Positions 3,001 to 53,768 of a stretch of 64,000 nucleotides of DNA are shown here, piece by piece (position 1 is the first letter of the stretch; each line of letters begins with the position of its first letter). The stretch is from Takashimella koratensis (Eukaryota > Basidiomycota > Tremellomycetes > Trichosporonales > Tetragoniomycetaceae). The notes beneath the pieces are model-generated. The model worked only from the letters and a program-made list of their open reading frames with translations. It searched no databases and had not been told where the DNA came from. The translations under genes were made by a program, and so were the position numbers. Location of the stretch: NCBI GenBank assembly GCA_003116875.1, contig BCKT01000006.1, positions 372,001 to 436,000 of the forward strand. Direction: 5' to 3'.

Positions 3001-3562
3001 GGCTCCTCGAGTCGATGGGGATCAACCCCCCGTTCTCGAGTTCAGGAGGGGCAGGGTACAAGGGGTCCCCGAGTAGGAATAGCAGAGCGAGCGAGAGGAG
3101 TGATGAGAGGGAGAGGTACGAGAATACCGTTAGGGGGATACACAGTCGTGCGCAGACGCCAGAGGTTGTGGACAAGTGGTAAGTTAAGATTGACGGGCAT
3201 AGAGAAGTGGAACAAGAGGGGAAAGCCTGGAAGGGAAAGCCTGGAGCAAGAAGTTTAGGACAATGCTGATGTGTAAACTCTAGGTCCTCGGTGCTTCTCG
3301 GTAACGAACGTATCATCCTCTCCACGCCAATCTCCGTTCGACCGGCACCTACCGTCCCACTCCCATCTTTCCTGCTTCCCGCACCGAAACGTCGTCAACT
3401 CATCTTGACTGATTTCCCGCGTCTCATCGCTGTGAAAGACGATGCAGCGGGGGAGTCGACGTCACCTACGAGCTCTACGGCGACGGCGAGTGCGGGGTCA
3501 AGTCCAGCGTTGAGCACGAGTGTGGGCGGGAATATGAGCGGGAGTACCGGGTCAGTCGGGCA

Positions 3563-4149: not shown

Positions 4150-4242
<93 letters not shown>

Positions 4243-25959: not shown

Positions 25960-27857
25960 ATGCAATCGAGGTCGAAACGGATATCTCGCGCTTTCATCGG
26001 TCTCGCCGTCGTTGCGGCGGTCGTCATGACCCTCGTCGAGGCAAAGGACAAGGTGAGCTTTCCTTCCTGGGCCTCGATCAAACCAAACCCAACAGCAAAC
26101 TAGAGTAGATTCTCGACTTCGAGACAAATTCGACTAGTCTGCTCGTATCCCATCAAGTCTACCTTGTAAGATGTGTCGCTGACTTGAGCAGCAGATCCAC
26201 CTCAAAGTCCCGACGTTTGAGAAGGAGCTGCATGGGCATGACGAGCATGGGAAACTCATGCGTCAGGTGTTTGCTACCCTGTTCCCTTTCAAGAGTCCAG
26301 CATGGAACTCGAGTGCGTATTGAGTCTGGCCTGGTTGTCGTGCTTGGGATGAGAGAGCAGGAAGTTGAGAGTCGACAGTGGTTTGAGATGTTGGTGCTGA
26401 CACGATTGCAGTCTTGGCGACTTTCTATATCTCCTCGTAAGTGCAGCCTCAAGCCCAACCACCCAGGCGTTTCTTTCTTCTTGAACTCTCAGCGTTACTC
26501 TCCCGCTCTCTGGGCCACGCTGACATTCCCCAGCGTTCCCAACTTTATCCTCCTCGCCGTCCCTGCGACCCTCGAGCCCAGCTCCCTCAACACCATGATC
26601 GCATTCGCGACCGGTGGTCTCCTAGGCGACGTCTTTCTCCACCTCGTCCCGCACGCTTTCTTCGGTGAGGGCGAGGAGAAGGGTCGGGCCTTTGTCGTTG
26701 AGGAGAGGCGGAACATTGTGATCGGGTAAGTAGGGGATACCGCTGCTTAAGATGCGAAGATGAACTCATTGCTGATTCGTCTGGACACCTTATTGTTACA
26801 TCGCAGCGGGTCAATCTTTGTCGGATTTGCTGCTTTCTTCGTCCTGGACAAAACGATGCGTGTCCTCAGTGCTTCTGCTGACGGAGAATCTCACGGTCAC
26901 TCTCATTCCCACTCTCATTCCCACTCTCACTCCCACTCTCACTCCCACGGTGCTTCCCAATCATCCGGCAAGTCCTCGGCCCTCGACGCTCCCGGGGAGC
27001 TGAAACAGCGCAAATCCCCTTCCGACGTAACCACGACCCCCGCCTCCGCGCCCTCGGAATCCACAACCAGCTCAGCAGCGGTTAACCCGTCTCTCAAGCT
27101 GTCTGCGTATCTCAACTTGTTTGGGGATTTCACGCACAATATCACCGATGGGCTGGCGATGGCTGCAAGCTTTTATTCCAGTCCGGCTTTGGGTGCGGTC
27201 ACGACGATCGCGACGTTCTGTCATGAGATCCCACACGAGGTGAGGTCTGGCCCTTGCCCCCTTTTGCTGTCATTACCTCCCACCTGGGTCCCGGTTTGAC
27301 GAGAATCGAGGCTAACGAGCTATTGTTTCCAGATTGCCGACTACTCCATCCTCATCAAATCCGGGTTTACAAAGTATCAAGCAATGGGCTCGCAGTTCTT
27401 CACTGCTGTTGGGGCGTTTGTGGGCACGTTCCTCGGGATTTGGATCGCAGAGAGCACGGGCGGTGTTGAGAGGACGATTCTGAATGAGGGCGAGGGGTTG
27501 TTTGGGACGAGCGTTAGTGGTGGGGATCTGATTATTCCCATGACTGCCGGAGGTGAGTTTTATGTGCTGCGTGGGACCTGTGTTGTGCATGGCATAGTCC
27601 ATGGGCTATGGCTGCAGTGTCAAGGTGACAGAACACGAGCTGACCATGCGCCAGGGTTCCTGTACATTGCAAGCGTGAGCGTGATCCCGGAGTTGTTGGC
27701 GGAATCGCGTAGCGCCAAGCAAGCGTTGAAAGAGTACGCTGCGATGGCCTTTGGCGTCTTCTGTATGGTGAGTAAAGATTCGCGTAGGATTGAAAAGGGT
27801 TGAAGACTAGTCTGCTAACATGCATTTGATCAGGCTGTCATTGCGTGGAACGAGTAG
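25960..27857 (+). CDS. ZIP family zinc transporter, KE4/SLC39A7 type (Yke4-like), 406 aa
   Basis: Moves zinc across the ER/secretory membrane. Exons 25960-26052, 26192-26312, 26412-26436, 26534-26725, 26807-27239, 27333-27552, 27655-27767, 27834-27857. The second exon start could shift by 3 nt because of a repeated CAG at the acceptor. Features in order: signal-anchor-like N-terminus ([19 protein letters not shown]); [10 protein letters not shown] segments with [20 protein letters not shown]; a long His-Ser loop (HSHSHS, about 10 pairs) between TM3 and TM4; [13 protein letters not shown]; then CHEIPHE, the LIV-1 subfamily HExPHE signature; final TMs. Length and motif order match KE4. The variable loop is the only unusual part. 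Confidence 0.92.
26893..26950 (+). repeat. CACTCN hexamer repeat coding (His-Ser)n loop
   Basis: Repeated CACTCC/CACTCT units encode about ten His-Ser pairs in the cytosolic zinc-binding loop of the KE4 transporter. Confidence 0.9.
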
Positions 27858-33854: not shown

Positions 33855-34421
33855 GTCGTGGTACGAGAGAAAGTCCTTGCGTCTAAGGAGAGGATGGCAC
33901 GATCTTCGCTAGTCGACCGCGAGGATAGGCGAGCCTTGGCTGTGGATGCAACAAGGAACCAGAGTATGGCTATCGGTAGAGTAGAGAATAGAGGAAGGAA
34001 AGTGAAAGTGAAATTGCCCGGTCCAGTCTTGATCAATCCGGATCACCCATGTGGCACCTATCACCCTGTCAAGTGGTACACAGCACTTGAAAACCGCCTG
34101 CATGGACAGGATGCTATAGTTGGTGTTTGTACGGGCTTACACCTTTGCCTAGACGATGCTCGTGTATGTAGAGTAAAGAAACGAGAAGGATGCAGAGACT
34201 GGAGAATGAAACGAACCTAGAGGCGCGCGTGTATCAAACACCTCGACCTCGGTATGAGTCATGATGGATTATATCGTACTCGTTGATCTGAAACGGTTGT
34301 CCTGCTTCGAGGGTGGGAGCTCACGAATAAGCCTTGAACAGGCTGTAGAGCTATCAGCTCGCCAGACGGTTTCACCCCAATCTAATCCATCATAGCTCAC
34401 CTTGCAGACTCATTCAAATCT
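33855..34421. other. Interval between MED19 start and peptide-precursor 3' end
   Basis: 567 bp. It should hold the MED19 promoter and the 3' end of the upstream peptide-precursor gene on the same strand. No coding signal recognised. Confidence 0.5.
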
Positions 34422-37400
34422 TCATGTTCTGTCGTCTACACACCCGTCGTTCCGCCAGGGTCAGTAGAGCTCAAAGCGTCTATCAATCGACCTTGGTGTG
34501 ACTCACCTTCCACAAAGGACTCTGTCATACCCTGCGATGTCGGTTCGGGATCCGCCTCGGCCTCACGCTTGAGCCCTACACACCCAGCTGCTACCATCAT
34601 GAGCACTGCCGCCTGGCCTCATTTTCAGAGTGAACTCACCGCAATCGCTCCTTTGGTCGACCTCGACCTCAGTCACGCGTTTCCACGCAAATGCAGGACC
34701 TGGACATTTGAGACAAGTCCTGTGTAATTGACTCAAAGGTACTTACGCGCGCTGCCGAATCCGAAACCCGTGGTCTTGAGGTTGGCCATCGCTTCGGCCT
34801 CGGCCTCAGCCTCGCGCCTCCAAGGTGCAGCCTGGTCTGAAGATGTGAGAACCTGTACCATGACTATCCTTCACTCGCACATACTGTTCATAATGCCGAA
34901 GTGATTGGTCTTCATGTTGGGTCCAGGCTCAGCATCTCGTTTGTTCCATCCTGCTTATAAGTTGTCGGCCATCAGTATTGACCGGGGCCAGAACCGCTGA
35001 AAACCCACCATTTATATCGGGGGTCGAGTTTCGCTTGGCAACGAGGTCCTCTGTCATGTCAAATTCCGAGATCAAGATATCTCAGCAGGCGCCCATCCTG
35101 TTGCATTTTTTTTCGCTCGGCTTACCGGCATCACGTTTCGCCCACTCTGATCAAGAGTTAGCTAGCGACTGGTAGGAAAGGCTTGTAGCTCTGCATCGCT
35201 CACCAGTGCTGTCTGGTGTCGAGTTCCTCTTGACCATGGCCTCGGCTGTTATGACGCCCGGAGGTCAAGGTGAGGCATCAGTCTCCTTCGGTTGAGTCTG
35301 CCAATGTCTGCTTACGGTGGCCAATGGGAGGGTTGTCATTGCCGGCGAAAGCTGGGTCACGCTTCGCGATGGCGTCCGCTGTTTAGGGTGATGAATGAGA
35401 AAGGTCGCTGATCAGCCTTTGGGCATGGGCGCTGACGCAGGGTCCCGTGTTGACGTACGGTGGCCAATAGGAGGATTGTCGATACCAGCAAATGCTGGGT
35501 CCCGCTTCGCGATTGCGTCCGCTACAGGAAATAAATCAGCCAAAGCCGACATTCAGGATGAGTTGGCGCCACTTACAATGCTTGATAGGGGGATCGTCAA
35601 TCCCGGCAAACGCGGGTTCACGCTTGGCAATGGCATCCGCTGGATGTGTTGATGAGTGTTGCCATTCGCTGGTCAGCTTTTGGCACGGACTCGGATGAGC
35701 GGAGTGCTTGGTCTACTTACGGTGGCCAATGGGGGGATTGTCGATACTCGCGAACGCTGGGTCGCGTTTGGCGATGGCATCGGCTAAGGTTCAGGACGTC
35801 AATCGATGCTAACACTCAGAGAAACTTTGCCACCCACAGTGCTTGATGGGAGGATCATCAATTTCAACTCCGGCGAAGGCGGGTTCACGTTTCACGATAG
35901 CTGAGTGGGCTGTGAGACAGTCACTCCCGCTTTCATCAGGCTCACACTTACGACGCTTGATTGGCGGATTGTCGACCGGCGAGCGTTTGACAGCTGCAAC
36001 AAGTTAATCGGTCAGCCACAAAGCACATGTCACTTCTTCCCAGGATGTCTCACGAGGCGTAATGGGAGGGTTCTTAGGCCGACCAACGAGCCTACCGCGC
36101 TTCGCAACAGCGTCCGAACCTTGAACATTTAACGCAGGACGTTCATGCTGTACTTACCAATCTTAATAGGCGGGTTGTCAATGTGCGTGCGTTCGTCAAC
36201 TTCGGCAGCTTGACACATTTAGCTGACTTGTTCAGACTTTCTCCGACTTGAGTTCAAACTCACGAGTAATGTACGGAGGGTGCATGGGGGGAGCGACAAG
36301 AGTGTTGCGCTTCGCTATGGCGTCGGTGTCTTTAAGTCAGTCTCTGGAGTCAGCAAAGGACTTACGAGGCTCAATCGGAGGGGTCTTCGGGCGGCCAACG
36401 AGTGTATTGCGCTTGGCAATAGCGTCGGTTTCTGCGAGTTAATCACCAGAACGGAGTTGTAACTCACGAGGCTCGATGGGAGGATTGTGAGGTCGAGCCA
36501 CAAGTGTGTTGCGTTTCGCAATGGCGTCCGTTGCTTTGGGTTAACTTTGGTATTGGGGTCACGACTCACGAGGCTTGATTGGAGGGGTGTGAGGACGAGC
36601 GACGAGGGTGTTTCGCTTCGCGATGGCATCCGTTTCTTTAGTAAGCCCAACAATCGCTTATTCACTCACGAGGCTCGATGGGAGGGTCATGGGGACGAGC
36701 AAACAACCGCCCACGCTTTTCGATGGCGTCCGCTGACTGGGGTCAGCATCATGCTGGCGAATTGCAGATTACCACTCGACCTACCGTCGGCGTATTCGAT
36801 CATGGTTGCGGGCGATCGTTTGGCGACAGAATCCGCTGTTTATACTCAGCCCAGCACCTTGGCGTTTTAGAGTGTGGGTGGACTCACGCTTGGCTTTCGC
36901 GTACTCGACCATGCTAGCAGGTGAGCGCTTGGCGACGGCATCTGCTGTTCATTGTCAGTATGATGTCGCTTCGTATATAGCGCAGATCAACTTACATTCT
37001 AAGTCTGAGAAGATAGGCATAGCAGCGGGATCATCCTCGGGCGCCGCCAAGTCAGGCTCGGCAGCACGTCCGATGGGCTTGATACAGGAGCGAATACCAG
37101 GTCCCCTGAAGATATCCGTTTTGGCTAATAGCTGTCAGCTAGGTAGCTTGTAATGCTCAGAGTACTGCCACTTACGGTCGCACGGGTCAGGCGGCGTGTC
37201 GACGGTGATGAAAGGCGAACGCCTGTGACCGACGACTAGGTCACGGCGGTACGAGTCAGCTAGTGCAGTACGAAGTGTTTGTGATAGCTTGAGACCGAGT
37301 CTTACTTTCACCATCTGGCTGGTTGATAGCCTCAGGAGCGACCAGGTCCGGCTCAGCAGCACGACCCACGGCCTTGATACAGGAGCGGATACCGGGTCCC

Positions 37401-38509
37401 CTACAAATATCGGTCTCGGCTGTCGGCTCTCAGCGGGGAAATTATGACGTCTCAGACTGCTGCGACTTACGGTCGCATGGGTCGGGGGGCGTGGCGACGG
37501 CGATGGCAGGTGAACGTTTGTTTCCAGCGATGAGGTGGATGGCTGCACGGCGGATCAGTGAGGCTACTCATTGCTAGAGATATCCACATACATTTGCTCT
37601 CGATAACAGCTTCGGGGGCGACCATGTCTGGATTGGGTGTGGCCTCACGCTCGATGAGCGAGTCTTCGATAGCAGGGGCGGCCGAGCGCTTCCGAAACCC
37701 TTTCGGGCCTAGGGAAGCAAGATGATAACCAGACCGATCAGCACTGCAACTCACAGGGATGCCAATGAAGAGCCTATCAACTCACAGCCGAGGCACCCAA
37801 TGTCCTCGATGGGCTGATGGTCGATGGCAACGGCAGGCGAGCGCTTGAAGACGCCGTCTTTTGAGTCGAGATTTCCCGCATTGACATTCATCAGACATCT
37901 TTGGTAGAGACAACGTGATCGTAATGCTTCTACTCACGGTCGAAATTCAGGATGTCGGGGGTAGGCGAGTCGGGCTCAGGCGCGGCATCGACAAACGGGT
38001 CATTGGTGGCAACGACGGGTGAGCGTTTGAACCTCCAACCGCCGGCTGTGAAGAGATTCGAAGCGCATGGCAGTCAGCAACTAACATCTATGGCGAGAAC
38101 CATTGAAGAGGTGACGTATACTCACGACCCAGGGGTTGCCTGCCTGGGTTGGGTTCGGCGTCACGTTCGACGAGCTGGTCGTCCACCGCACGCGCAATCG
38201 CGTCGACGTCTGATTGGAAGGCAAATCAGAGTTTGATTAGCTAAAGCCAGCAGAACATTGGTGGCGAATGATTCAACTTACGCGGTCCAGCGATCGCCTC
38301 GGGAGTGGGCATGTCAGGCTCGGGCACCGCGTTGCGCTCGACAAGTTGAGAGCCTGGTGCTAGTGTCAGAAAAGAAGGAATTGGTTAAGAGACCGGTGGC
38401 GAATGTGTGCGAGGCTATGCGGAGGGTTGTGTCACTTACCCAGGTCACGGATAGGCGCCGCCAGGGCGACAGACGACGCGAACGCCGCCAAGAGAAGGAA
38501 AGGTTTCAT
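34422..38509 (-). CDS. Secreted Kex2-type repeat peptide precursor, about 33 exons, about 742 aa
   Basis: Starts with a signal peptide (MKPFLLLAAFASSVALAAP). The rest is a chain of short units, most containing Lys-Arg or Arg-Arg, the Kex2 protease site. All 32 introns I placed fall in phase 1, so every internal exon is a multiple of three and nearly every one carries a single unit. Unit families along the protein: WRFKRSPVVA and FKRSPAVA; two copies of a two-exon module (KRSPAIAVATPPDPCD + FRGPGIRSCIK-type); VAKRSPA.M; AIAKRNTLVARPHTPPI (four copies, 36263-36636); AIAKRDPAFAGIDNPPIGH (four copies, 35318-35783); NSTPD..W.KR; and finally FGIMNNQAAPWRR and GFGFGSARPAFAWKR. The stop is reached after GAC AGA ACA. 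No enzyme domain. Fits fungal KEP (Kex2-processed repeat) proteins such as repellents, mating-factor-like or RiPP precursors. Individual exon ends are manual calls. Confidence 0.8.
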
Positions 38510-41500
38510 GGTTGCTCAACGCGACCACGAGAGCGTGAAGGTGTTGAAAAGTGCAGTGTAAGTGAGTGAAGGCGATGATCGAGAGAGACAGAGAGGAGGT
38601 GAAGAGGAGGTAGTGAAAGAGAAGGGTGAGTATAGAAGGAAGAGTGAGTTGACGTTATGACTGAACGAGGCGGTGTGCGCGGTGAGCTGAGAGTGAGCAA
38701 CGGCGAGGGCGCCTTGACGGCGAGCCAGATCTGTTACTCTCTCTATCCATTTCCATTCCTCGTCTTTCCTTTCCTTTCCCCTACCCTTGCCCGTCTCCCA
38801 GCCCTTCGTTCACCTTCCATCCCCACTCTATCCCTCTCCTTCTCGCTTGCCGGCCCAACATTTCATTCCCCGGTCGAATGGTGGGCGGAGCACGGTCGTC
38901 TCATCCCGCCCGCTCTCCGAATTGCCCAAAACGCAGATCAGCATCAACTCCAGATCGAGGATCGAGTCGAGGCCTGTCTATTTCGGGCACGGTTTGATGG
39001 CGAGGTGGAGGCTGAAGGAGGGGGACAGGTGGACAGAGAGTGGGAAGAGGAGAAGGAGGAGAGGAAGAAGATGCAGGGGCGAGGAGAGGAAGAGACGAAG
39101 GTGGAAACGGGGGTCGTCAGCTGTCCATCCCAGCATGCCTTTGAGTGTCCTCGGCGTCGTCCTCGTCCTCATCCTCTTTAGAGATCAAGACACACAAGAG
39201 AGCAACGACTTGGGACTATCGGAGTTTCGAGTTTGAAGGTGAACCGCCACTTCCCGATGCCAAGAAACAACAGGAATCGGTGACCACGCGAGAACAAGGA
39301 CGATCAATACTAGCTCGCTCAGATTCGAGGTCAGAAAACACTTTAGCTTGTTAGCAGTAAGTATGGATCACCTGTCCCGCTCGTCGTCAAGGAACGTGCT
39401 AGACCAGGGACAGTCGAGAGTGAGGCCAAAGGACGTTATCGCCAGTCAAAGGATGAGTTGTGTTTCCGTTCCTATCAATCAATCATGGTCCGACCGAGTG
39501 CCTTTAAGGGATGGGGATGGGTTTTGATTGACTGCATGCACCCATCCTTTGAGTGTGGAGCGGGAACGGGTCAGTGCGGGATGACACTGCTGCTGCGTGA
39601 CTCGACGAGGCCTCCTTTGAAGAAAGGGTTGTATCGATGTGTATCGGGTTTGCGTGTGTGCGTTGCGTATGCAGAGGACAAGCTGTGTGCCCCGGTCCAA
39701 CTACCCCACAGGTGGCCCACCTCCACTCCGACGAGCACGGTCCAGCTTGCCCAATGAGTGAGTGTTCAACTGTCAACCCGTTGGACAAGTTGTTGCCTAA
39801 ATCGCCCCAGTCGATCTTAGCGTGCATTAAGCGAGCCGTCATGCAACCAGTTACTCCAACAAGCGATGACAACCGAGGCATGACTCATCGGAGGACGGGT
39901 TCCCCAACCCAACCTGCTCGTTATGTCTCTAGGTTCAGGCACAACCGCCACCTGAGCGAGTGAAAAGCTTGATTCAGGAAGCGAACAACGACGGCCAAGC
40001 CAAGCCAAGTGGGTGTCGAGAGTTGTGTCTGCAGAGCCGATGCCGCTACCTGGGAGCTTCCCTGTTAGATCTAGGCTGACGACAAGCCAGATCGCAAATT
40101 CGTGTCAATGGACGCGATCGCGCCTCTCAACGTTCTGCCATCTTGCTCCGTTGCCGTCTTGGCGGTGGCGTAGGCGCCTGGGGGGGTTTCTTTTTCTCTT
40201 TGCCGCGTCTTCTTCGCGCTGACCGTAACCACCATCCTTATGTAAAGAGAAGCCTCGGAAGACCGTGCGCAGCGCGTGGACGGTCGTGCTTTTGTTCGAT
40301 AACCCCCCAGGGTCCTGTTGACGTGGCAGGAGATGGCGCGGTGGTGGGGTATTACCGGGCCACAGGGATCAAAAAACCAATCACGAGAAAACCCAGCACA
40401 AAACTGCACGAGACGAAATTTGAGCGAGGCAGAAAGAGAGAGGACGGAGGCAACCGAACAGGTCATTGCTACCCTAGGGGCTGACAGCGAATCGTGGCTT
40501 CCCTGCAATAGTGTCTTCTGAAGATCACAAAGTATCCAGTTGTTCGGGTCGAGATCCTGCAAGATGATTCAAGAGACCGCTCGTGGCCATGCCGTTGACC
40601 TGTCGGACGAGACAAATGGCCAGCAGCCGAACACATACCGTCGATCGAGAAAGATCAGCCAGGTTGAGGGCGGTAAAGTTTGGCTGTACGTCGCCTTTAC
40701 CAGCCTTCTCACGAAATGTCTCGTCTGCCAGACGTGCAGCCGCGAACCCGCAGAGGAGAGACAATGGGTGTGCAGCGCAGGAGAGGAGGGTGAGAGGAAC
40801 GGACCGAGGAACAATGGACGAGCAAGTAATAAAATATGCAGCGAATGTCTTGCTGCGAGTGTCTCTGTTCTCACGCTCCAGCCCGCGGGGGAAGGAGCAG
40901 GAGAGGGAGGGCAAGGTCGGGCACGAGGGGAGAGGAATTTGATGTTTTTCATTTTCTTTTCATTCTTTTCGTTTCCTGGGCGTTTCTGGACAAGCAAACC
41001 CTGAGGTCGGAAGCTGAAAGAACAAGACGAGAGCACTGGAGGGGAGCCTGTAGCCAGATCGCGCCTCGAGCTTGCGAGCCTCTTCACTCTGGTTGCCGGT
41101 GCCGCAGCAGCAGCACAGAGGATCGGGTTTCGTCGTCTCGTCTCATCCTCGGCTCGGTCCCTGGCTTGCCCTTACCCATCCCTCGTCCCACTCACCCCTC
41201 CCAACCTACGCACAAAGGTCGGCTTTGCCCCGCTCTGCGTGCGTCCCAGAACCCCATCTCATCCCATCCCACCCCACCAGGCAAGGGAACAGGAGCAGAG
41301 ACCCAAGTCCAGACAGCAGCGAGACAAGACAATTCCGAGTGTCGAGCGAGACAAGGCAAGTTTTTTCCTCTCTCCGGAGCAAACAACGACGACGATATCA
41401 ACAACTGCCCTCCTCTGCGACTGTTTATCTTCTCCTCGTCTCTCTTCCCATCGTTGTTGTCACCGTTGTCGTTGTCGTTGTCGTCGTCGTCGTTGTCGCG

Positions 41501-42856
41501 TGTTCGCTCCATCGGTCATCGCGCCCTTATCAAGTAGTCGTCGCCAGTGAGTCGTCTCCCCTAATTGGATTCTTGCTCGATACAGTCCGCGGTCCGACGT
41601 GAATAGCAGTTGGGCAGGAGGAGAGAGGGGAGCGGGCACGAGAGTCAACCTTATTTCCCACACCTCTGGCACCCCTTCTTAATCAATTCTGCGTTTCCAT
41701 ATTGCTGGGCCCGTCTTGTTCTCGTCTTACCCACTTAACTCCAACCCCATTCATCGTCCCTCTCCCACGCATTCCCGACCAGAGTTTCGTCTCGGTGTCG
41801 TGACCCAAGTCGTGAACGGAACTGATCTCAGTCTTGCTCCCACTCTCTCTTCATCCGACCGACCCCAGACACCCACCCGATACCATTCACTCGTTTCATC
41901 GTCCACATCAAGACTTGTCCTTTAGCCTTGTTCTAGCTCGCTTCACTCATCAGCGTCTCTCTGTTCGTGAACCGACCCAGAAACCAGCCAAGCGACCCAA
42001 CGCGCCAAAAACAACTAGACTCGTTTCTTTAACTGACCGAGATCGACAATCACGCTGCTAGCGACTGGGACCTGTGGACCCGTGCATCATTAACGTGATC
42101 CTCCCTCGTCTCGTCTTGCACGCACCTTCTCGTGTCTGATCAGCAACATACAGCTTGTCTGTCTGTCGCCTTGATCGTCTCCCGCTGCGTGGTCTCGTCA
42201 CGCCCCTCTCGTCTCAAAGCGACCACCGCTCCCACGCACTGGGCACGCCCCTTCACTCCCCTTCAGCCCCTTGCTGCCCCTGCCCCCTGCCTTTGCTTAC
42301 ATTTCTACCGACATCATCATCATCACTTTCGCATCCAATTTTATCCCGCTTCCCCGTATTTTCACCCGCCGCCCTCCTTGTTCTCCTCGACCCAATCTCC
42401 TTGTCTTCCCACTCTCCCTAACCCTTCATCCACTCTCAAAGACTATCCATCTGTTCTCGCGTCTGCCATCTTCGGATACCGCGCAGACTAGAGACCACTT
42501 CCGACCCCGTCATCGCTACTCTTGGTTCACGGATTCTCTTTCAACCCGCGCCATCATCGGGCCAGGCGAGTAGGGAGCATCCACTCGACCCCTTCCACCT
42601 CACATTCACGCGCCCAATAACTCGTGAGTTTCCTTCTTCCTATCTCTGCATCCATCGGATACGACAGCACGCGTAGACCTAGCATGCCAACGGGGATGCT
42701 TTCCACGCTCCCCTCATTCCGCAACGCAAACTTTCATTGCATCATCGTTCCCGACTCCACCCCTTTTCACTCCAACCGGCTACTATGTCTTACCATTGGA
42801 CCCATGGAACAGAAAAACTGATAACGTGTCTATTCTCAGCATTCCCAACTGCCATC
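38510..42856. promoter_or_regulatory. Long divergent intergenic region between peptide precursor and OPT transporter
   Basis: 4.3 kb between two divergent start codons, the longest gene-free stretch here. The last 1.7 kb before the OPT gene is strongly pyrimidine-rich, with GTTGTC/GTCGTC repeats near 41452-41497, as in long fungal leaders. A probable leader intron lies at 42624-42839 (donor GTGAGT, acceptor TCTCAG), ending 17 bp before the OPT ATG. Open frames between 38657 and 41100 show no domain, conserved composition or coherent splicing, and I do not call them. Confidence 0.5.
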
Positions 42857-45800
42857 ATGTCCAACCCGGCTGCGCAGGACCCCCGGCCTACCGGCACTTC
42901 CTCTTCCCTCCCTAACCCTGCCGACCCAAACCCAATCTCCCGCCCATCCACTGGCAAACGCCCCCGTACCGCAGCCCGTCGTGTCCGCACCGCTCGCCCC
43001 GATACATCTGTCTCCGCCATCGGTCCCCTTCCCGAGCAAGAGTTCTTCCCCGAGGGAGAGGACGAGGACTATGATGAGGAGTACCTCGAGGATGAGGAGG
43101 AAGAGGAGGGAGAGGATGTCTTTGCGTTCCACCGACCCCAGACTGCCGCGGTGCCCGGCCAGGCTTTCTCGTCAGCCGACGAGCAGTCGGCACCCCCTAC
43201 TGGGATCATGCCCACGACCGCTGGCACCATGATGACCGATATGTCTCGCCAGACTGGCGGTACATTCGGCGGCCACATTGATGTCCCCACGTCCGCACCA
43301 ATGCAGCACAACCCGTCCCCAATCGGTGCCATCGATGTCGGTGGCCATCCACCGGACCGCGAGTTCGACATTAAGAATCCACCTCCCTTCAGTGGTCGCC
43401 AGAACCTGAACAACTCCTCGTTCGCATTCTCGATGCCGCACAATCGCTCTTATGACTCGCAAGCGGCCGCAAGCCGGGCTGGTCAGACCAACACTGGCCA
43501 GTCTCTTGTCAGTCGTGCGAGGCGCATGATGGGTACGGGAATGACTTCGTCTCGCATGTCTTACGACTCAAGCCGCGACTCGACGCACCCGGCAGAAGAC
43601 CAATCATCTTACGGCGAGGGCTCCAACGGCCGACCGTCGGCGCGTCGGATGAAGTCTTCGGCGCCATTAATCGAAGACAGCGAGATTGGGTCCAAGTCGT
43701 CAAACCGTGGGCAATCGCGTCACAGTTACGGCTTGACCGAGTTGACCGGAGAGATCACTGTTCCCGACGGTCGAACCACGTACGGCGACGGCCTCGGCGG
43801 GGTCGTCAAAGAGGGAGCGAGCGAGGAAGGTAGTATGGGTGCCATCGATGTCGACCTCTTGGAGGAAGACAGCCCTTACGAGGAAGTTCGCGCCTCCGTG
43901 TCTAACATTGATGACCCGGAGATGCCTGGTACGTTTACGTCTTTACGACATGCATTGGTGAGACGAAGCTGAAACGTTGACTTGCAGCTCTTACACTTCG
44001 AGCTTGGGGGCTGGGAATGTTCCTTGCTATCGTCATCTGCGCGGCAAACACCTTCTTCAACTTCCGTAACCCGGCTCCTGCTATTCCGGTGTTATTTGTT
44101 CAGTATGTGCCCATGTCATGACTCTCCCAAATCCACGCTGATCAACCTTCTAGAGTTGCTGCCTACCCCCTGGGCAAGTTCGTCGCTTGGGCCTTGCCCA
44201 TCCGATCTTTCACAGTTCCCCGGTGGCTGGGCGGCTTTACATTTAGCCTTAACCCGTGCCCTTTCAACATCAAAGAGCACACGATTATCGTCATGATGGC
44301 CAACATTTCTATCGCTGCCCCATATGCTCTTTACACTATCACCGCCAGCAACAAATTTTACGAACGTCCTCTCGGCTCAGGATTCAACATTCTGTTCATC
44401 CTTGCCACGCAGCTTACGGGTATGTCCATGGCTGGTATGGTGCGACGTCTCGTTGTTTGGCCCGCTTCGATGCTCTGGCCTGGCGTTCTCGTCGTCACTA
44501 CCAACTTGAACACGCTACACGCCGAGCCTGATTCGGGCTCTGGCGGTATATCGCGTCTCAGGTTTTTCATGTACGCCATGTGCGCGGCGTTTGGCTGGTA
44601 CTTCATTCCTGGTAGGTGTGCTCAAATACAATCTTTTGCTTTGATACTGACAGCCGATTTGTAGGTTTCCTGTTCACCGCACTTTCTTACTTCTCTTGGG
44701 TTTGTTGGATTGCCCCCAACAATCCAGTCGTCAACCAACTGTTCGGCGTCTCGACTGGTCTCGGGATGGGACTCTTTTCCTTCGACTGGTCGCAAATCTC
44801 TTGGATCGGGTCTCCCCTCACTACTCCCTGGTGGGCCGAGGTCAACGTGGGCATCGGGTTCTTGCTGTTCTACTGGATTATCGTTCCCATCCTTTACTAC
44901 ACCAACGTAAGTAATGTGCTCACAGTTCTCTGATTAGGCGTTGATGTTGGCTTTCAGGTATGGTGGCTCGCCTACTTGCCCATGTCCGCTGCTCAAATTG
45001 CGGACCGCTTCCAAGACACCTACGAAGTCTCGTACATCCTCACTCCGGACTTCGAACTCAACAAGACCGCCTACGCTTTGTATTCGCCAGTCTATCTTAC
45101 GGCGACGTTCGCCATGACGTACATGCTCGGGTTTGCGTTGATCACGACGCTGCTTGTCCATACCGCCCTCTACCATGGCCCTCGGATCTACAAGGCTGTT
45201 CTTCGCATGAAGACGGAGAAGGACGACATCCACATGAAGTTGATGAGGCAGTACCCCGAAGTGCCGGACTGGTGAGTCAAACCAACGCCGAGCTTGCCTA
45301 ATCTAACCAATCTTCAGGTGGTACCTTATTACGTTGGTCCTCTGCTTAGTCTTTGGCATTCTGTCCATCGAGATCTTCCACACCGGTCTTCCTGTATGGG
45401 GCTACTTGGTAGCGACCTTGATTGCGGGTGTATACATCGTTCCTTCGGCGTTCATCTATGCTTTGACTGCTATCCAACCGAACATCAACATCCTCAGTGA
45501 ACTCATCCCTGGTTACATCTTTGCGGGCAAGCCTATCGCTGGCATGGTGAGTGTGTCCTGCAGTGTCCAGGTTTGAAATATTAACGATGCTATAGGTCTT
45601 CAAGTCTTTTACTGTGCAAAGCTTGACCGAAGCGATGAGCTTCTCTTCCGCCATGAAGCTGGGCCACTACATGAAAATTCCGCCTCGCTCCATGTACTTT
45701 GCTCAGTTCTCAGCCTGCTTCGTCGCATGCTTCGTTCAGTTTGGGGTATCCAAATGGATGTTCGACTCGATCCCCGACTTGTGCTCGAGTCACCAGAAAA

Positions 45801-46535
45801 ACCTCCTCACTTGCTCCAACGCTCAGACATTCTTCACGGCCTCTGTTGTCTGGTGAGTTCGCGCGCGAAAGGGGTGAAGGTGGAAAGCTGACGCTCTTAC
45901 AGGGGTTTGGTTGGACCAGATCGTATTTTCGGAACCGGTGGATTGTACCACCCAATCTTGTGGATGTTCCTCGCTGGCGCGCTCGCCCCTATCCCCTTCT
46001 GGCTCTACTGCCGCCGATACCCCAAGTCGTTCTTGCGCAACTTCAACCTCCCCGTCGTCTTGAGCGGTCCGCTTTCCATCCCTCCGGCCACAGGTTACAA
46101 CTATGCCAGCTGGCTGCTTGTCGGTTTTGTCTTCCAATACTGGATCAGGCGTCGGGCTTTCGCCTGGTGGTCTAAGGTAAGCAGCATCTCTGTCTCACTC
46201 ACATGACGCGAAGCTGATGAATTGCTCCAGTACAACTATGTGCTCAGCGCCGCTCTCGATGTGGGAACCATTGCGTCAGCCATTTTCATCTTCCTTGTCC
46301 TTGGCCTTCCCCAAGTTTCCCTCAACTGGTGGGGTAACACGGTCATGGAGAACAGTAAGTTCATCTTATATCAATTCTAGATCTCACGGCTGACCGAGGA
46401 AGCTTTGGACTGGAACGGTATTCCTTATTATATCGCTGGGGAGACTGGCTTTGGTCCATCTACTTGTAAGCCGTCCTCATAGATTCAGTCGGCCGACTCG
46501 AGTTAGGCTAACCCGTGTTTGCAGGGAAGGTTTGA
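42857..46535 (+). CDS. OPT family oligopeptide transporter, 1052 aa
   Basis: Proton-coupled importer of small peptides at the plasma membrane. Exons 42857-43928, 43988-44102, 44154-44611, 44665-44906, 44958-45271, 45318-45546, 45596-45852, 45903-46176, 46231-46354, 46403-46465, 46525-46535. About 357 residues of hydrophilic N-terminus, with an acidic block (EGEDEDYDEEYLEDEEEEEGED), precede the membrane part. The transporter core shows FNFRNPAPAIPVLF, NPCPFNIKEHTIIVMMANIS, QLTGMSMAGMVRR, FSWVCWIAPNNPVVNQLFG, FDWSQISWIGSPLTTPWW, LIPGYIFAGKPIAGMVFKSF, KLGHYMKIPPRSMYFAQ, and an end GPSTWKV typical of the family. NPG and KIPPR motifs of OPTs are recognisable in form (NPCPF, KIPPR). Neighbours on both sides encode secreted peptide precursors. 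The exact peptide substrate cannot be read from sequence. Confidence 0.93.
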
Positions 46536-48765
46536 GAGCGGGGTGCGCAGTGGCATCAGCGTTCTTATTTTGGAAATGATTCCGGTCATCGATGGTGTTT
46601 AGACTTTGAAAACAATTATCATTTCGATTGATCGAGTCGAGTTACAATATTATTTTTTACTTACTGGGTACTCGTCATTGTGTCTTTGGTGATGCAACCG
46701 TGTCTGCCGTCTCCGTGACCCAAACAAACCCGCCGAACCCCCGCCGCTGATATATTTGGCGCACGCTAGTGTCAGATCGCAGTTGTAGGTGCCTATTCAG
46801 AGGTACCGGTGAACACACGAACGTGGCAACAGTGAAACCTCCGTTCCTGATTCGATGAAGTGTCGTCGTATGCTCCATTGTGACATACTGTAACAAAAGA
46901 AACCCCCCCCTCCCCCCCACGTGCAGCCGGCTGAGTACACAGCAACTTCCGCATGCAGTGCACCGCAACTCGCAGTCTGGGTACGGAAGTGGCGGCGCTT
47001 TATTGCCTGACTGGACGACGGCCTAGGTACGGCGCGGTTCGGCACAACGACAGCTACATATGCCTGCTGCCACTGAGTGTCCTGTGAGGCGTTCTGGGAA
47101 CAGGGCGCACGCCGACTGCCGTCTTGATCCATGATCCCGGCTCTTGGTAACAGCAAGGTATCCTCATCGGGACGATCCCCACAGGATCGACCTGCCGTAA
47201 ATTTCCCTCGGTGTCACTGTGCAGTGGTGCGGGGACACGCTGACGGACGCCAGGATGTGAGGGATGGCTGTCGCACAGGCGCACCGGTGTGTCGCTTGTG
47301 AAGGAAGGAAGAGGTGACGAGTGAAGGAGAGGGAACACGCCACCGATCCTTTTGCTTGTCATGATGTGCACAACCCGCCAAGCCTAGACGGTACAGAGGG
47401 TCACAACCTGAACGGACTTTTTTTACCAGAGCCTGTATGCTGGGTCCCGATTGCCAATACCCTGCAGCTCCCTTGCGTCTTCGCAAAAATGCAGGGTGTG
47501 CCCCCGGGCCTGGCTGAGGCTTGGGAGGCAGTGGTGCTCGCTCTTTGCCTCCCCAGGCACGTTAATACAGGACCTGGCTTTTCGTCTCTGTCAGACGCCA
47601 GGCACCTAGAGCCCCGCGGTGGCCGTGGCAGAGGGGGGTTGCTGTAATAGATTTGCCACTTCGCTGCTTTGGGTAGGCCTGTGCTCCAGACTAACCCGTG
47701 GGATTTTGGGTTTCGATCCATGGTGACATAGCCAAGTCCAATGCAAAGCTTGCAAGCTGACACGTTTCGTTCTTTTTCTCTCATCTCAGGTCTAATCCAC
47801 GGATTTGAAGAGATTGCAGAGCATGAATCGGGTTGGTGCTGTTTACAACGTTTGCCTTTGCATTGGTGGTGCATGCGTCAAGAACAAGAACAAGGTCAAA
47901 TTGAAGGGGGCCAAGGGGGCCACTCAGGATTTGAATTCAATTGTTTCGGACCTATGGTGCTAGTTCAGCAAGAGTTTCCTTTTAGGGTAGTTATGCGCCT
48001 TGTGGCTTGAGAGGGGGAAAATGGGACGCAAGGGAAGCCCGGACGACCGCCAAGGGAAAATGGGACTGGGTGGAGTAGACGTCGGCTCTCAGGCGCCAGA
48101 GCAGAAGTCTGGATCTCGACCACCGGACTCCCTTGTGCGTTTCATTGGTATCCTGACCGGCAGTACCCGCGTCTGCCCTCTCCTCTTTCGCCTTGGCCAC
48201 AAACTCCCGATCACCTGCCAGCCTTTGATGCCGTATGCTGGTGACTCCACTCGGCGCTCGCAGCGTGTGCTTACCTCCCTTGGCGGTCCTCCCATGTTTT
48301 GCCGTACCGCCGTCAGCCCACGGGTTGCGTCTCCCCCTTCCCCCACCCGTTGACGCCCCCCCTTTGCGTGAAGTCTCCACCCATCAACACCTGTGCCCCT
48401 GGTGGACCATACTGTCATAACAACAAGGCACGGGCGCAGTGTGCGGGGGCGTTCTCGCTGTTGCCTCATCGCTGTCCCGAGTGGTCAAACACAATCCCAC
48501 CCCGTCTCCCCCCACCGCTCTCCCCGGCTGCCCTTGACCCTTTTCGGCCTCGACCTGTCACTCTTGAAAATCGTTGTCAACGATCCCACCTAGCGTCTAT
48601 TAAACTACTCGGCACCTTTTCTCTTTCCCCCTCTCTTTCCCCATAATCCTCAGGTCTGTTAGTGTCTTAGTCCAGTACTAGAGGCTTCATCGACCCGTAA
48701 TCACATCACTCGACTTCACAGTCATCTATACTCTTGTCGACCGACTTCTCAGTCCATCAGCGATC
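46536..48765. other. Intergenic region upstream of the second peptide precursor
   Basis: 2.2 kb between two plus-strand genes. It should include the promoter of the precursor at 48766; the 200 bp before its ATG are pyrimidine-rich. I found no tRNA-like, transposon or coding signal. Frames here are short and lack domains. Confidence 0.45.
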
Positions 48766-49467
48766 ATGAAGTTCTTCGCCATCGCCGTCGCCGCGGCCGT
48801 CGCCTCGTCGACTGTTCTCGCCGCCCCCGTCGCCGCCCCTGAGCCCGTCCCCACTGTCGCCCCCGACTGCTTCGGCTTCGGTTGCGGTCAGGGCGCTCCC
48901 CCATGGAAGCGCGAGGCTGCCCCCGCCCCTGAGCCTACCGTCAAGGCCGACAGCTTCGGCTTCGGCAGTGGTCAGCCCGCCCCTGCCTGGAAGCGTGAGC
49001 CCGAGGCAGAGCCTACCGTCGAGGCCGACGGCTTCGGTTTCGGCAGCGGCCAGCCCGCCGACCCATGGAAGCGCGAGGCCGCCCCCGCCCCCGTGCCCAC
49101 CGTCCAGGCCGACAGCTTTGGCTTCGGCAGCGGACAGCCCGCTCCCGCCTGGAAGCGCGAGCCTGAGGCTGAGCCCACTGTCCAGGCCGACAGCTTTGGT
49201 TTCGGCAGCGGNCAGCCCGCCCCCGCNTGGAAGCGCGAGCCCGAGGCTGAGCCCACTGTCAAGGCCGACAGCTTCGGTTTCGGCAGCGGNCANCCCGCCC
49301 CCGCCTGGAAGCGCGAGCCCGAGGCTGAGCCCACTGTCAAGGCCGACAGCTTCGGTTTCGGCAGCGGCCANCCCGCTCCCGCCTGGAAGCGCGAGCCCGA
49401 GGCTGAGCCCACTGTCAAGGCCGACAGCTTTGGCTTCGGCAGCGGCCAGCCTGCCCCCGCTTGGTAG
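48766..49467 (+). CDS. Secreted multi-copy Trp-ended peptide precursor with Lys-Arg sites, 233 aa
   Basis: Single-exon gene. A signal peptide (MKFFAIAVAAAVASSTVLAAP) is followed by eight tandem units. Each unit is a spacer rich in Glu-Ala, Ala-Pro and Glu-Pro dipeptides ending TVKA, TVQA or TVEA, then a core of the form DSFGFGSGQPAPAW, then KR. The first core is the variant DCFGFGCGQGAPPW; the third is DGFGFGSGQPADPW; the last core ends at Trp followed directly by the stop codon, so no KR is needed. KR fits Kex2 cleavage, and X-Ala/X-Pro spacers fit a Ste13-type dipeptidyl aminopeptidase, as in yeast alpha-factor maturation. Five unresolved bases (49212, 49227, 49290, 49293, 49371) lie in copies five to seven. 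No other domain. Related to the C-terminal units of the precursor at 34422-38509. Confidence 0.9.
   Translation: MKFFAIAVAAAVASSTVLAAPVAAPEPVPTVAPDCFGFGCGQGAPPWKREAAPAPEPTVKADSFGFGSGQPAPAWKREPEAEPTVEADGFGFGSGQPADPWKREAAPAPVPTVQADSFGFGSGQPAPAWKREPEAEPTVQADSFGFGSXQPAPXWKREPEAEPTVKADSFGFGSXXPAPAWKREPEAEPTVKADSFGFGSGXPAPAWKREPEAEPTVKADSFGFGSGQPAPAW
48865..49467 (+). repeat. Tandem 72-78 bp coding repeat, eight copies
   Basis: Eight head-to-tail copies encoding spacer + core + KR. Copies four to eight are nearly identical at the DNA level, and copies five to seven contain unresolved bases. Confidence 0.9.
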
Positions 49468-50567
49468 ATTTTAACGGTTTGAGGCTCGAGCGCGTCACTT
49501 GTGAGTACATTCTTTCTCTCGACATCGAATTGTTTCTGACTTCTCCAGAGATTGTCACGACCACTCTAGAATCGAATTCTCCCGTCCCATCCCATCTCCC
49601 CCCTCTATCTCAGCCTCTGCCACCCTAATTAGGTTCTCTTGTGCGAGCATAAAGTCTCGTACACTTCACTTTGCATTATCGTTTACGTCTTCTCCTTCGT
49701 AGCCTTACGTCTTTTCGAACACTCCCACGCCGTTCCCCACCTCTCTCTTGTTTTCCTTTTCGCTCCAGTCTGTTTCTCGTATGGAACTTTGGATGGGTCA
49801 AATCAATATATCGCTTTGCTTCTTGATCGACCCCGTTATGCAACTTGATTCTAACATGCAAATGGAATGTCGATACCGAAACCTTGGGACAAACGGGACG
49901 GCACGGACACGGATCATCGTGCCAGGCAGATCCTTCCCACCCAACCTGCGCATCCCTTCGGTTGGACGGAAACTCGGGTTGGACGGATGGGACGCGCGGG
50001 TTCATGTTCCTGTGGCGAAAGCGTTCCAGATCCTCGCCGCTCCCCCCCAACCCCCCAACCCTGTTCACTCCTCACGGCATGGGAAAGAGACAGAGGTATT
50101 CCGGATCTCCCGATCTCATCGGGTCATACAACGTACGAATGCCGTCCATCGAGGAGGTGACGCCCCCATCCTTTGCGCCCGCCCTGGCGGAGCACTCCCT
50201 CCATCCTTTCCGTCCATTACGGTCATCAATTACAGTTTCTGCATTCCTCGATGTACGGTATGCGCCCCAGGGCAGCAAAAACAAGCAGATGGTACGGGCC
50301 GTTCATTATGCACTGTATCAGGCAGGTGGGTGCGTCTACAAGGGAAAGATGGGTGGAGACAAAGCGGTACTATGGGAAACTAGGATCGACTGCGTGTTGT
50401 TTACGTCTCTATTGTCCGTTCGACGGCATGTTACAGCCCCCCACCCGTTCGCCAGCCGAGCTATGCCTTCGCGTTCCTGGCTGACGCGGGGCGTCAAGGG
50501 GTAATGGGATATGTAAAGGACGGACCCCCTCTTGGCCGTCCTTGGCAATGTAAGGTATTATACGTGT
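49468..50567. other. Interval between convergent peptide precursor and transcription factor
   Basis: Holds 3' flanks. An intron-like pair (GTGAGTAC near 49500 and CTGACTTCTCCAG near 49540-49551) suggests a 3' UTR intron of the precursor mRNA. The open frames at 49748-50504 lack any domain and are not called. Confidence 0.45.
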
Positions 50568-53500
50568 CTATGGCCCTAGGTCACCACCACCACCGCCGGT
50601 CCCGGCAACCCCTGTCGCGGCACCACCCGCCCCGGTGCCACCACCACCACCACCACCACCACTTGCGTTGTTCAACAGCGCAGCGGTCTGTTGCCAGTCC
50701 CCCAAAAAATCAAACGCGTCACCCATGTCGTAAGGCCAGTCGGCGAAGAGGTCGGTCGGCAGAGTGAATTGCGTCGCGTCGAGCGCAGGGTCAATGACGA
50801 GGTCCCCATTAAACCCGTTGACACCCGAGATTGAGGCTTGGGCTTGGGCTTGGGCGCAGGCTTGGGTGGTGTCTGCGCCTGAAAACCCATTGAATAGGAG
50901 ACCATCGTCCACGACCCCTGATGTTGTAACAGGGGTAACCGCGTTCAATGCAGTCCCACTCAGTGGATGGATGGGATTGTTGTCGTCGTCGTGACCGTCG
51001 TCGCCTCGTCTCGGGTCCAGCGGGTTCTGTTCCCGCCAAGGTCCCAGTTCCCAGTCACCTGGGATCGGAGGATTAAGGTTTGGGCCGGGATTGGCAGCGC
51101 CCACAATACGACTACCCAAAGTGGCGGTCTCGACCCCTCGCCCGTTTCGGCCCTGATTGGCGTTAAATGGGATCGACATCAAAGAGGAAGTTTGCACGTT
51201 TCCACTCCTGTGGTTGTCGTCTGGATCTGTCGTTAACGTCAAGGTCCCAGGCCCTGGGCGTTGGGCGTTGGCAGTGGCTGAACCTTTTTCGCCCTCGTTG
51301 GTAGGCACCATGTCGCCCGGAGTAGTGGGTGTAATGTTGCCCAAACCACCCGATCCAGTTGCCGACGGTCCGGTACGCTGTACCTGTTTACGCTGTGGCT
51401 GTTGCGGTTGGCGACGGTTACCGCCGGCTTTGGACCGTGGCTCTTTTGTTCCAGCCTCACCGGCGGTTGAATTAGGCGCAGAATTGGACGGTGATCGGGT
51501 CGAGGTCGTCCCAGCGGTGGGCGCAGCGAGGGTCCCAGTTTGATGAGGTGGGGTCGGGGTCTGAGCCGTCCAGGCAGCCGCTGGGAGTGAGTGATGGAAG
51601 ACTTGGGCGTAGCGAGAGCGTTCCATCGCGGCGGTCGTCATGTATTGATCGATACGAGAGACGTGTGCGCGAAGTCGGTCGGCAATGCCTGGCATGTACG
51701 ACATGGCTGACTCGAGTGTCGACAACAGGTCCGCCATAGCGAGGAGGACGTTGCGTACTTGCAAGTAGGACCATTGTGACAGAGGGGATTGGATGACACC
51801 GCCTAGCAGGTGGCCGACGCCAGCGAGGTGATGCAGCTGAGAGTGGAGCGCGAGTGTCAGCCTGGTCCAGGTGGTAGTGAGGAAAGAGAGGTACGTACCA
51901 TCGGCGAGCTGCTAGCATGGAAATAAGCCGTGGGCACCGTAGCCAATGCATCGAGTAACTCTCCCGCGATCGCGCATCGCTTCTCGACACTTGGGTCCTC
52001 TTCCAATCCCGTCAACACCATCTTCAACGTCTGAATCGTGATTATAATATTTGCGGCTAGCACGCGATAGTCAGCGCCCATTTTCTCACCAACTAAGTGC
52101 TAATTTCCAACTTTTACTCACCTTGGAAGCCATAGCGATCGTCCCTCAACCTCCCCGTCATCGCCTGCGCACCCTTAAACTCCCTCGGCAACCCGTCGTA
52201 CAGGTTGGTGATGACTTTCAGAATCTCCGATACCGATGGTCCGGCAGGCGCAGCGAATAACGTCGTTACTGGCGCCGACCTGTCCTCGTCTCCGTACGTC
52301 CGGCGAGCTCGTAGTTGGTCCAGCGCATGTTCAAGAATACGGTACATGTCGGTCGCAAAGTTCCACCCGCGCAACCATGAGACTCGGGACGATGGCGCCG
52401 AGGTGGAGGCTGGCGAGGTGCCTGGGGAGACGATGCCGTGTTCAGTGATCTCATCGTCGTCGAGAACTTCAGCCGGGTAGAGGACGGTACTTTGAGCCTC
52501 TCGATGTCGCACAATCCCGCCAAATGTGGTCGCGATGTAAACGTCGACGCAGTACCCCGCCCAGAACTGGTCATCGTCAGCGTCGAGTCCCTCACGAGAG
52601 AGCGGCACTCTGCTATCTGACTCACCAATCGTCTCCGCTCCTGAATATCTGGCTCCTTCAAGTCCATTGGCCATCTACTTTCGTTGTGGAACCCGTCGTT
52701 GGCGCACATCGTGATGTAGTCTCCTACGTGGGTCTGCACATCCACGATCCGACCATACTGGATACTCGACATTGCCAGTGTCACTTTGGCGCGTTTGTAC
52801 CCAAAGTCAGTCGCCGTCGAGAGGTCTGACGGAATCGCAGCCTTCGCTGCTGCGTGGAACACCTCGGACGGGGGGATAATCGACGAAACGTGTGGGGATA
52901 TTGGCGAGTCGGGACGAGCCGCACCGTCACGTAGACGAGCTGCAGCAATCGCACACACCGCCATGACGCCAGCAAAGAACGGTCGGTCAGTCTCGTAACG
53001 CCGATTACGGATATCACGGATGAACGTTGGCCAGTGGTAGTAAGGACATCTGCCACGGTGTCAGTGATGCCTCTCACACCCGGCCCGGAAAAAGAACAAT
53101 TGGAGACGAGGACAATGAAATTAGAGCTCACATTGGGTAGACGATCCGGTGATAGGCGTCGACAAGCTCGTCTATGGCCTCTGTCGGGGCAACCTCTTCA
53201 TATTCCCACTTGTCGTCGGGTACCGCGTGCACTGCGCTGCCGTTGCTCTCAGACGCGACCATGTGCATCCCCCGTCCGCTCGACGACCGCGGCATAGGCT
53301 ATAGGGCGGCAAGTTAGCATTTGATTAGACTATTGGTGGATAACGCGGCTATGCAGCGGTTATGCAGGAGCTAGAAAGAACGAGTAGCTCACGCCGCGAC
53401 GCTTAGCAGGTCTGTCATAAGTGCAGTCCAAGTTGTACTGAGCACACGGCTCGCACACGCCTGGCGTCGAGCTGGCGGAACACTGCGGAGAGTTAGGGAG

Positions 53501-53768
53501 GCAGGCCCTTTGATAGCTAGAATCAACATCCAACACTCACTTTTATACCGCCGCGGTGACACCTGTCACACGCACGCTGTAGGTAGTGAGCAGAGCGCGT
53601 CAGCATGATCAGTCCGCAGTGGCAATAACGTCGCTATGAGAGAAGCGACGCGGGTAGGGTGTTGGTGCGCAAACATCAATGTCTCGAGCTGTAGCTCACC
53701 GTGACGCGCTTGCGCTTTGTCGAGCCCGGCGAGTCTTTCCGATCTTGAGCAGGGAAAGCGCCTGACAT
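50568..53768 (-). CDS. Zn2Cys6 fungal transcription factor, 885 aa
   Basis: Exons (minus): 53768-53700, 53576-53541, 53482-53393, 53298-53132, 53049-52626, 52566-52122, 52056-51899, 51836-50568. A binuclear zinc cluster lies at about residues 26-53 with the spacing C-x2-C-x6-C-x8-C-x2-C-x6-C (CDRCHRGGIKC, VCEPCAQYNLDC), flanked by basic stretches (KRKRVT, KRRG) for DNA contact. The cluster is spread over three small exons. Residues about 100-420 are helical and match the fungal-specific middle homology region in style (YHRIVYPICPYYHWPTFI, FFAGVMAVCAIAAARLRD, FWAGYCVDVYIATTFGGI). The C-terminus is Q/G/N-rich with acidic patches (DLFADWPYDMGDAFDFLG), plausibly an activation domain. It lies next to the Trp-peptide precursor and divergent from the enoyl-CoA hydratase gene; either could be a target. 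No specific regulator name is assigned. Confidence 0.9.

What the first reader, a model, noticed from the sequence alone, without database searches (positions are those of the whole stretch)
34422..53768. Candidate peptide-signalling locus: two secreted precursors, an OPT importer and a Zn2Cys6 factor
The precursor genes at 34422-38509 and 48766-49467 flank an OPT oligopeptide transporter, with a Zn2Cys6 regulator next to the second precursor. In Cryptococcus the secreted peptide Qsp1 (NFGAPGGAYPW) is imported by Opt1 and acts inside the cell. The Trp-ended cores here (SFGFGSGQPAPAW) share FG near the start, Gly/Pro in the middle and a final Trp. The gene order therefore suggests secretion, processing and re-import of a multi-copy Qsp1-like peptide. 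Linkage alone does not prove function.
Basis: inference. Interest (0 to 1): 0.92.

Follow-up and report, generated by a model that had tools for sequence, protein, structure and literature searches.

The report
Secreted peptide genes flank Opt1 orthologue
In a fungal relative of Cryptococcus, two related genes for small secreted tryptophan-ended peptides sit on either side of the gene whose Cryptococcus counterpart imports a quorum-sensing peptide, hinting that such fungi may send peptide messages and read them by taking them up.

Summary
The four genes are real. Precursor A (48766-49467 +) has eight Trp-ended cores between Lys-Arg sites; X-Ala/X-Pro leaders (STE13 type) predict 18-residue peptides. 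Precursor B (38509 to about 34400, -) has about 33 exons under purifying selection; its end encodes two Trp-ended cores, one clearly related to A's. A genome search with B matched only B and A. The OPT (42857-46535 +) is the orthologue of Cryptococcus neoformans Opt1, the Qsp1 importer. Published text gives QSP1 (CNAG_03012) and OPT1 (CNAG_03013) a common intergenic region, so a peptide gene beside Opt1 recurs. A published STE13-type repeat protein of Trichosporon oleaginosus has the same plan and a core closer to A's main one. Best reading: a Kex2/STE13-matured peptide signal read through Opt1, about 0.42. Main rival: an alpha-pheromone-like ligand with another receptor.

The parts
48766..49467 (+). 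Precursor A: Kex2-type repeat protein, 233 aa, 8 Trp-ended cores; predicted mature 18-mers such as TVKADSFGFGSGQPAPAW; first copy TVAPDCFGFGCGQGAPPW has two Cys
   Evidence: copies pS 0.36, pN 0.09
34401..38509 (-). Precursor B: Kex2-type repeat protein of about 33 exons (25 KR and 3 RR in the model); 3' end uncertain
   Evidence: model, in which 32 of 32 introns up to exon 33 are phase 1 (28 of 33 in the cruder model); purifying selection on repeats; dibasic count
34640..34950 (-). B exons 29-31: cores NMKTNHFGIMNNQAAPW/RR and NLKTTGFGFGSARPAFAW/KR after X-Ala/X-Pro leaders; the latter is clearly related to A
42857..46535 (+). OPT oligopeptide transporter, orthologue of C. neoformans Opt1 (CNAG_03013), 11 exons, long acidic N-terminal region
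50568..53768 (-). Zn2Cys6 transcription factor with Fungal_trans domain; its link to the peptide genes is position only

Best explanation
A and B are secreted pre-pro-proteins. In the Golgi Kex2 cuts after Lys-Arg, a Kex1-type carboxypeptidase takes the basic residues off and leaves Trp at the end, and a STE13-type dipeptidyl aminopeptidase removes X-Ala/X-Pro pairs, giving 17-18-residue peptides (signals are in the sequence; cutting is inferred). The peptides act as a density or self signal. They, or a shorter product trimmed outside, are taken back by the neighbouring Opt1 orthologue and act inside the cell, as Qsp1 does in Cryptococcus (inferred from orthology and neighbourhood). A is the dedicated multi-copy source; B would release the same kind of peptide from its end plus a varied set of others. 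The Zn2Cys6 factor may be a local regulator (speculative).
For: All 8 A copies give an 18-mer after STE13-type trimming (the first with an assumed signal cleavage); 24 of 100,000 joint shuffles of the four distinct leaders keep the register. B's two Trp-ended units follow the same rule, 17 and 18 residues. Searching the genome with B gave 22 matches: 18 in B, 4 in A, 0 elsewhere, best A match E 5e-6; only best candidates are scored. Opt1 orthology. QSP1 beside OPT1. A random point has a chance of about 5e-4 of lying within 4.4 kb of this OPT. One locus each with a Kex2-type P-domain and a DPPIV_N domain was found; Kex1 was not searched. Purifying selection on both precursors. No STE2 match (no positive control).
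Against: The quoted core is not detectably related to Qsp1. 18 residues exceeds Qsp1's 11; substrates of about 4-8 residues are what I recall for other OPTs. Relatives of this OPT at 50-55% identity occur in many Basidiomycota among the 120 listed of 2,008 hits, so it may be a general nutrient transporter. No excess of shared promoter words. Two searches of a 5.8-billion-protein set found no relative of A at E up to 10, so synteny in relatives is untested. QSP1's side of OPT1 is unclear: gene numbers and positions suggest 3', an inversion at about 210 kb said to affect both genes suggests 5'. The locus was chosen because of this layout.
Confidence: 0.42

Rival explanations
1. The peptides are alpha-pheromone-like ligands seen by a surface receptor (an orphan GPCR); the OPT next door is coincidental or nutritional.
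For: The precursor plan is that of ascomycete alpha-pheromones. Published close kind: a Trichosporon oleaginosus repeat protein giving QSWGGCGGRGTPCW with STE13 signatures, same 14-residue frame as DSFGFGSGQPAPAW (S, G, G, P, W shared; 15 of 5,000 shuffles reach the score, 61 of 5,000 with Trp kept). Le Marquer et al. speculate on cognate GPCRs.
Against: No STE2 match (no positive control); the STE3-type loci found are of the class that sees lipid-modified pheromones (recalled). Does not explain the Opt1 neighbourhood shared with QSP1. B's exon 30 core is no closer to the T. oleaginosus peptide than shuffles are (880 of 5,000).
Confidence: 0.27
2. The OPT clears or recycles the secreted peptides (signal removal or nitrogen salvage) rather than delivering a message.
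For: OPT proteins are peptide importers; linkage would follow equally.
Against: In the orthologous Cryptococcus case import is needed for the effect (Introduction, passages).
Confidence: 0.12
3. The peptides act on other organisms or on surfaces: antimicrobial, effector, or Rep1-like hyphal surface peptides; linkage to OPT is accidental.
For: Functions of KEPs are largely unknown; knock-outs of kep genes in Coprinopsis gave no detectable phenotype and the authors suggest biotic interactions (abstract and introduction). B would release a varied set.
Against: Rep1 lacks the STE13 signature (section 15); the A cores are short, Gly/Pro-rich and uniform.
Confidence: 0.13
4. A and B are precursors of cyclic RiPPs (dikaritin type).
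For: Same repeat plan with Kex2 sites. Of 76 proteins like the putative basidiomycete pheromones, 17 had a DUF3328 gene nearby (passages).
Against: No UstYa match in the genome (no positive control); the cores of A and the two Trp-ended cores of B contain no Tyr.
Confidence: 0.03

Closest known systems
Qsp1/Opt1 quorum-sensing system of Cryptococcus neoformans (CNAG_03012/CNAG_03013)
   Same: Opt1 orthologue; secreted-peptide gene beside it; peptide ends in Trp with FG near its start
   Different: Qsp1 is 11 residues and is released by Pqp1; here repeats with Kex2 and STE13 signals, predicted 17-18-mers, two precursors; main core not above shuffles
STE13-type Kex2-processed repeat protein of Trichosporon (Cutaneotrichosporon) oleaginosus, Le Marquer et al. 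2019
   Same: Same precursor plan, same 14-residue frame ending in Trp; probably the same order of fungi
   Different: The published core has two Cys, here only the first copy of A has; its genomic neighbourhood and full sequence were not seen
Ascomycete alpha-type mating pheromone precursors
   Same: Kex2 sites, STE13 dipeptides, several copies
   Different: Basidiomycete with no STE2 match; STE3-type matches lie on other contigs, C2 and C15
Rep1 repellent precursor of Ustilago maydis
   Same: Kex2 repeats, as in B
   Different: No STE13 signature in Rep1

Membership tests
Kex2-processed repeat proteins (KEPs) | N-terminal signal peptide | tested here: inconclusive
   Hydrophobic N-termini seen by eye in A and B; no predictor run
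Kex2-processed repeat proteins (KEPs) | Repeated cores between KR/RR sites | tested here: met
   A: 8 cores; B: 25 KR, 3 RR
STE13-type (alpha-pheromone-like) KEPs | X-Ala/X-Pro dipeptides in register after the Kex2 site | tested here: met
   7 of 7 leaders after a KR in A, and the first with an assumed signal cleavage; the three C-terminal units of B that were tried
Ascomycete alpha-pheromone system | STE2 receptor | tested here: inconclusive
   No match, no positive control
Qsp1/Opt1 system | Opt1 orthologue | tested here: met
Qsp1/Opt1 system | Peptide gene beside OPT1 | tested here: met
   A 2,233 bp and B 4,348 bp from OPT; of 10 ORFs tried from the gaps and near A, none reached a Pfam cut-off; Cryptococcus neighbourhood
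Qsp1/Opt1 system | Peptide homologous to Qsp1 | tested here: inconclusive
   Main core not above shuffles; two of the other three cores weakly; QSP1 precursor sequence not available
Qsp1/Opt1 system | Release by Pqp1 outside the cell | not tested
   No Pqp1 search was made
Qsp1/Opt1 system | Import and action inside the cell | not testable with these tools
   Needs experiment
Dikaritin RiPPs | UstYa-family oxidase | tested here: inconclusive
   No match, no positive control

The most novel reading that the evidence does not exclude
The Opt1-linked peptide genes of Tremellomycetes are one old signalling family: Qsp1 and the puzzling alpha-pheromone-like repeat proteins of basidiomycetes would be relatives, and the missing receptor of those peptides would be no GPCR but the Opt1 importer.
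Probability: 0.25. Interest if true: 0.87.

Novelty: new variant of a known kind. Interest (0 to 1): 0.66.

Why it matters
Basidiomycetes encode alpha-pheromone-like precursors whose function is an open question and whose receptors are only guessed at. Two such genes beside the Opt1 orthologue, as QSP1 is beside OPT1 in Cryptococcus, give a concrete candidate for reception and suggest that signalling by peptide import may be wider than one pathogen.

Tried and rejected
Likeness of the main core to Qsp1 as evidence: rejected. Shared promoter words as evidence for co-regulation: none above background; B-A 12, OPT-A 10, OPT-B 20, TF-A 11, TF-B 20, TF-OPT 10, against a mean of 11.9 and a 95th percentile of 22. 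Protein-set search for relatives of A: none at E up to 10, twice (8,000 candidates scored,274); low-complexity words limit this search, so it says little. RiPP reading: no UstYa match. Further genes in the gaps: of 10 ORFs tried, 9 had no Pfam match at E 0.01 and 1 a match below its cut-off. Literature: the original Qsp1 papers (Homer 2016, Tian 2018) are not held. Searches returned no paper; the listings of 50, 64 and 75 showed no title on such a locus in Trichosporonales; the library is limited.

Full report
WHERE IT IS. The window lies in a 25.1-Mb, 24-contig genome (contig C6, 372001-436000). The nearest OPT in the protein set is from Cryptotrichosporon argae (69% over residues 358-1051), then Kwoniella species (62-65%), C. 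neoformans (62%), Cutaneotrichosporon and Vanrija (61%). Cryptotrichosporon is in Trichosporonales, Tremellomycetes.

PRECURSOR A. The ORF at 48766-49467 encodes 233 residues. Cutting at KR gives eight units. In 7 of 7 units after a KR the leader before TV is of even length and made only of X-Ala or X-Pro pairs, and 18 residues ending in Trp remain; the first unit fits too if the signal peptide ends at residue 19, which I assumed. The four distinct leaders keep this register together in 24 of 100,000 shuffles; the copies are related, so this is a guide and not a probability. The copies differ more at silent positions (pS 0.36, pN 0.09; copies 2-8 0.34 and 0.05). The first copy has two Cys in place of Ser. 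Five bases in A are N, so the array may not be fully resolved.

PRECURSOR B. On the minus strand a splice model from the ATG at 38509 gives about 33 exons plus two doubtful ones. No phase was imposed, yet 32 of 32 introns up to exon 33 are phase 1, so exons can be duplicated in frame. The exon repeats are constrained: exons 22-25 pS 0.79, pN 0.07; exons 14-16 pS 0.72, pN 0.07. The 3' end stays uncertain.

A AND B ARE RELATED. B exons 30-31 encode EAEAEAEAMA-NLKTTGFGFGSARPAFAW-KR and exons 29-30 DAEPGP-NMKTNHFGIMNNQAAPW-RR. GFGFGSARPAFAWKR shares 11 of 15 residues with A's SFGFGSGQPAPAWKR; 0 of 200,000 core shuffles and 0 of 5,000 whole-B shuffles reach its score of 61, while the best place outside A in the unspliced six-frame window scores 40. 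A whole-genome search with B returned 22 matches: 18 in B, 4 in A (E 5e-6 to 1e-4), 0 elsewhere; only the best candidates are scored, so absence elsewhere is provisional. The A matches span B's EA-rich leaders too, hence the separate core test. The genome search with A itself found A alone at E up to 0.001, so the kinship shows only from B's side.

THE OPT IS OPT1. The gene has 11 exons (scripts had misplaced its end). A C. neoformans protein, P0006, has P358, M484 and W932, the residues named for CNAG_03013/OPT1 in PMC8092252 (passages); of 13 offsets tried only zero fits all three. P0006 matches the window gene with 951 summed bits, the C17 OPT region with 166, and the C11 OPT region not at E 1e-3. 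OPT-family matches in the genome fall in three loci (12 exon matches).

NEIGHBOURHOOD. QSP1/CQS1 is CNAG_03012 (passages in PMC8561399 and PMC6687208; [quoted passage not shown] So a secreted-peptide gene adjoins OPT1 in Cryptococcus, as on both sides here (2,233 and 4,348 bp). If the placement holds this spans two orders (that Cryptococcus is in Tremellales is recalled). QSP1's side is unclear: CNAG_02858 at 594,765 and OPT1 codons rising from 211,137 to 213,165 on chromosome 3 suggest 3'; PMC3618354 (passage) reports an inversion of the first ~210 kb affecting both genes, which suggests 5'. The chance of a random point lying so near this OPT is about 5e-4, but the locus was picked because of this layout.

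QSP1 LIKENESS. Number of 5,000 shuffles of Qsp1 that reach the real score (in brackets: with Trp kept last): main A core 722 (2,246), first A copy 43 (217), B exon 30 core 264 (1,298), B exon 29 core 39 (194). For the T. oleaginosus core of PMC6339444 (passages and section 15), same order: 15 (61), 33 (130), 880 (2,038), 44 (102). So the main A core is closer to the T. oleaginosus peptide, the B exon 30 core to Qsp1, and the other two are about equal; none of this proves homology.

PROCESSING AND RECEPTORS. Matches found in the genome: one P_proprotein (Kex2-type) locus and one DPPIV_N locus, STE3-type matches at apparently three genes (8 exon matches), no STE2 and no UstYa match (both without positive control). 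Kex1 and Pqp1 were not searched.

LITERATURE SEEN. PMC7537855: passages and Introduction. PMC9769878: abstract and introduction. PMC7329392: passages; it reports on average 1.00 KEP per Tremellomycetes strain and one KEP type shared by Yarrowia and Cutaneotrichosporon. PMC6571750, PMC5959062, PMC9296135, PMC10312749, PMC6730849: passages. Homer 2016 and Tian 2018 were not held. OPT substrate sizes and the ligand class of STE3 are recalled.

VERDICT. Shown: the four genes, the kinship of A and B, the Kex2/STE13 signals, the Opt1 orthology, the recurring neighbourhood. Inferred: secretion, trimming, import, signalling. The import reading is the single most likely one, but less than even.

Noticed in passing
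window 4152-4267: A run of about 116 C (96% matches); may be an assembly or sequencing artefact.
   Followed up: no
window 14484-14571: Perfect 21-bp tandem repeat, 4.2 copies, purine-rich.
   Followed up: no
window 26109-27800: ZIP zinc transporter gene in pieces on +; RRM protein at 22820-24259 and a protein-kinase piece at 1950-3179.
   Followed up: no
L019-L023 (G000 C15:465003-469309): Apparently two STE3-type receptor genes within about 4 kb, besides one on C2; not checked for a mating-type locus.
   Followed up: no
window 34950-34640 (-): In both Trp-ended cores of B an intron splits the codon five residues before the Trp (model), while A has no intron in its coding sequence; one may derive from the other by intron loss or exon shuffling (speculation).
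   Followed up: partly
window 49212, 49227, 49290, 49293, 49371: Five of the window's seven N bases lie inside the A array, a possible sign of unresolved repeat copies.
   Followed up: partly
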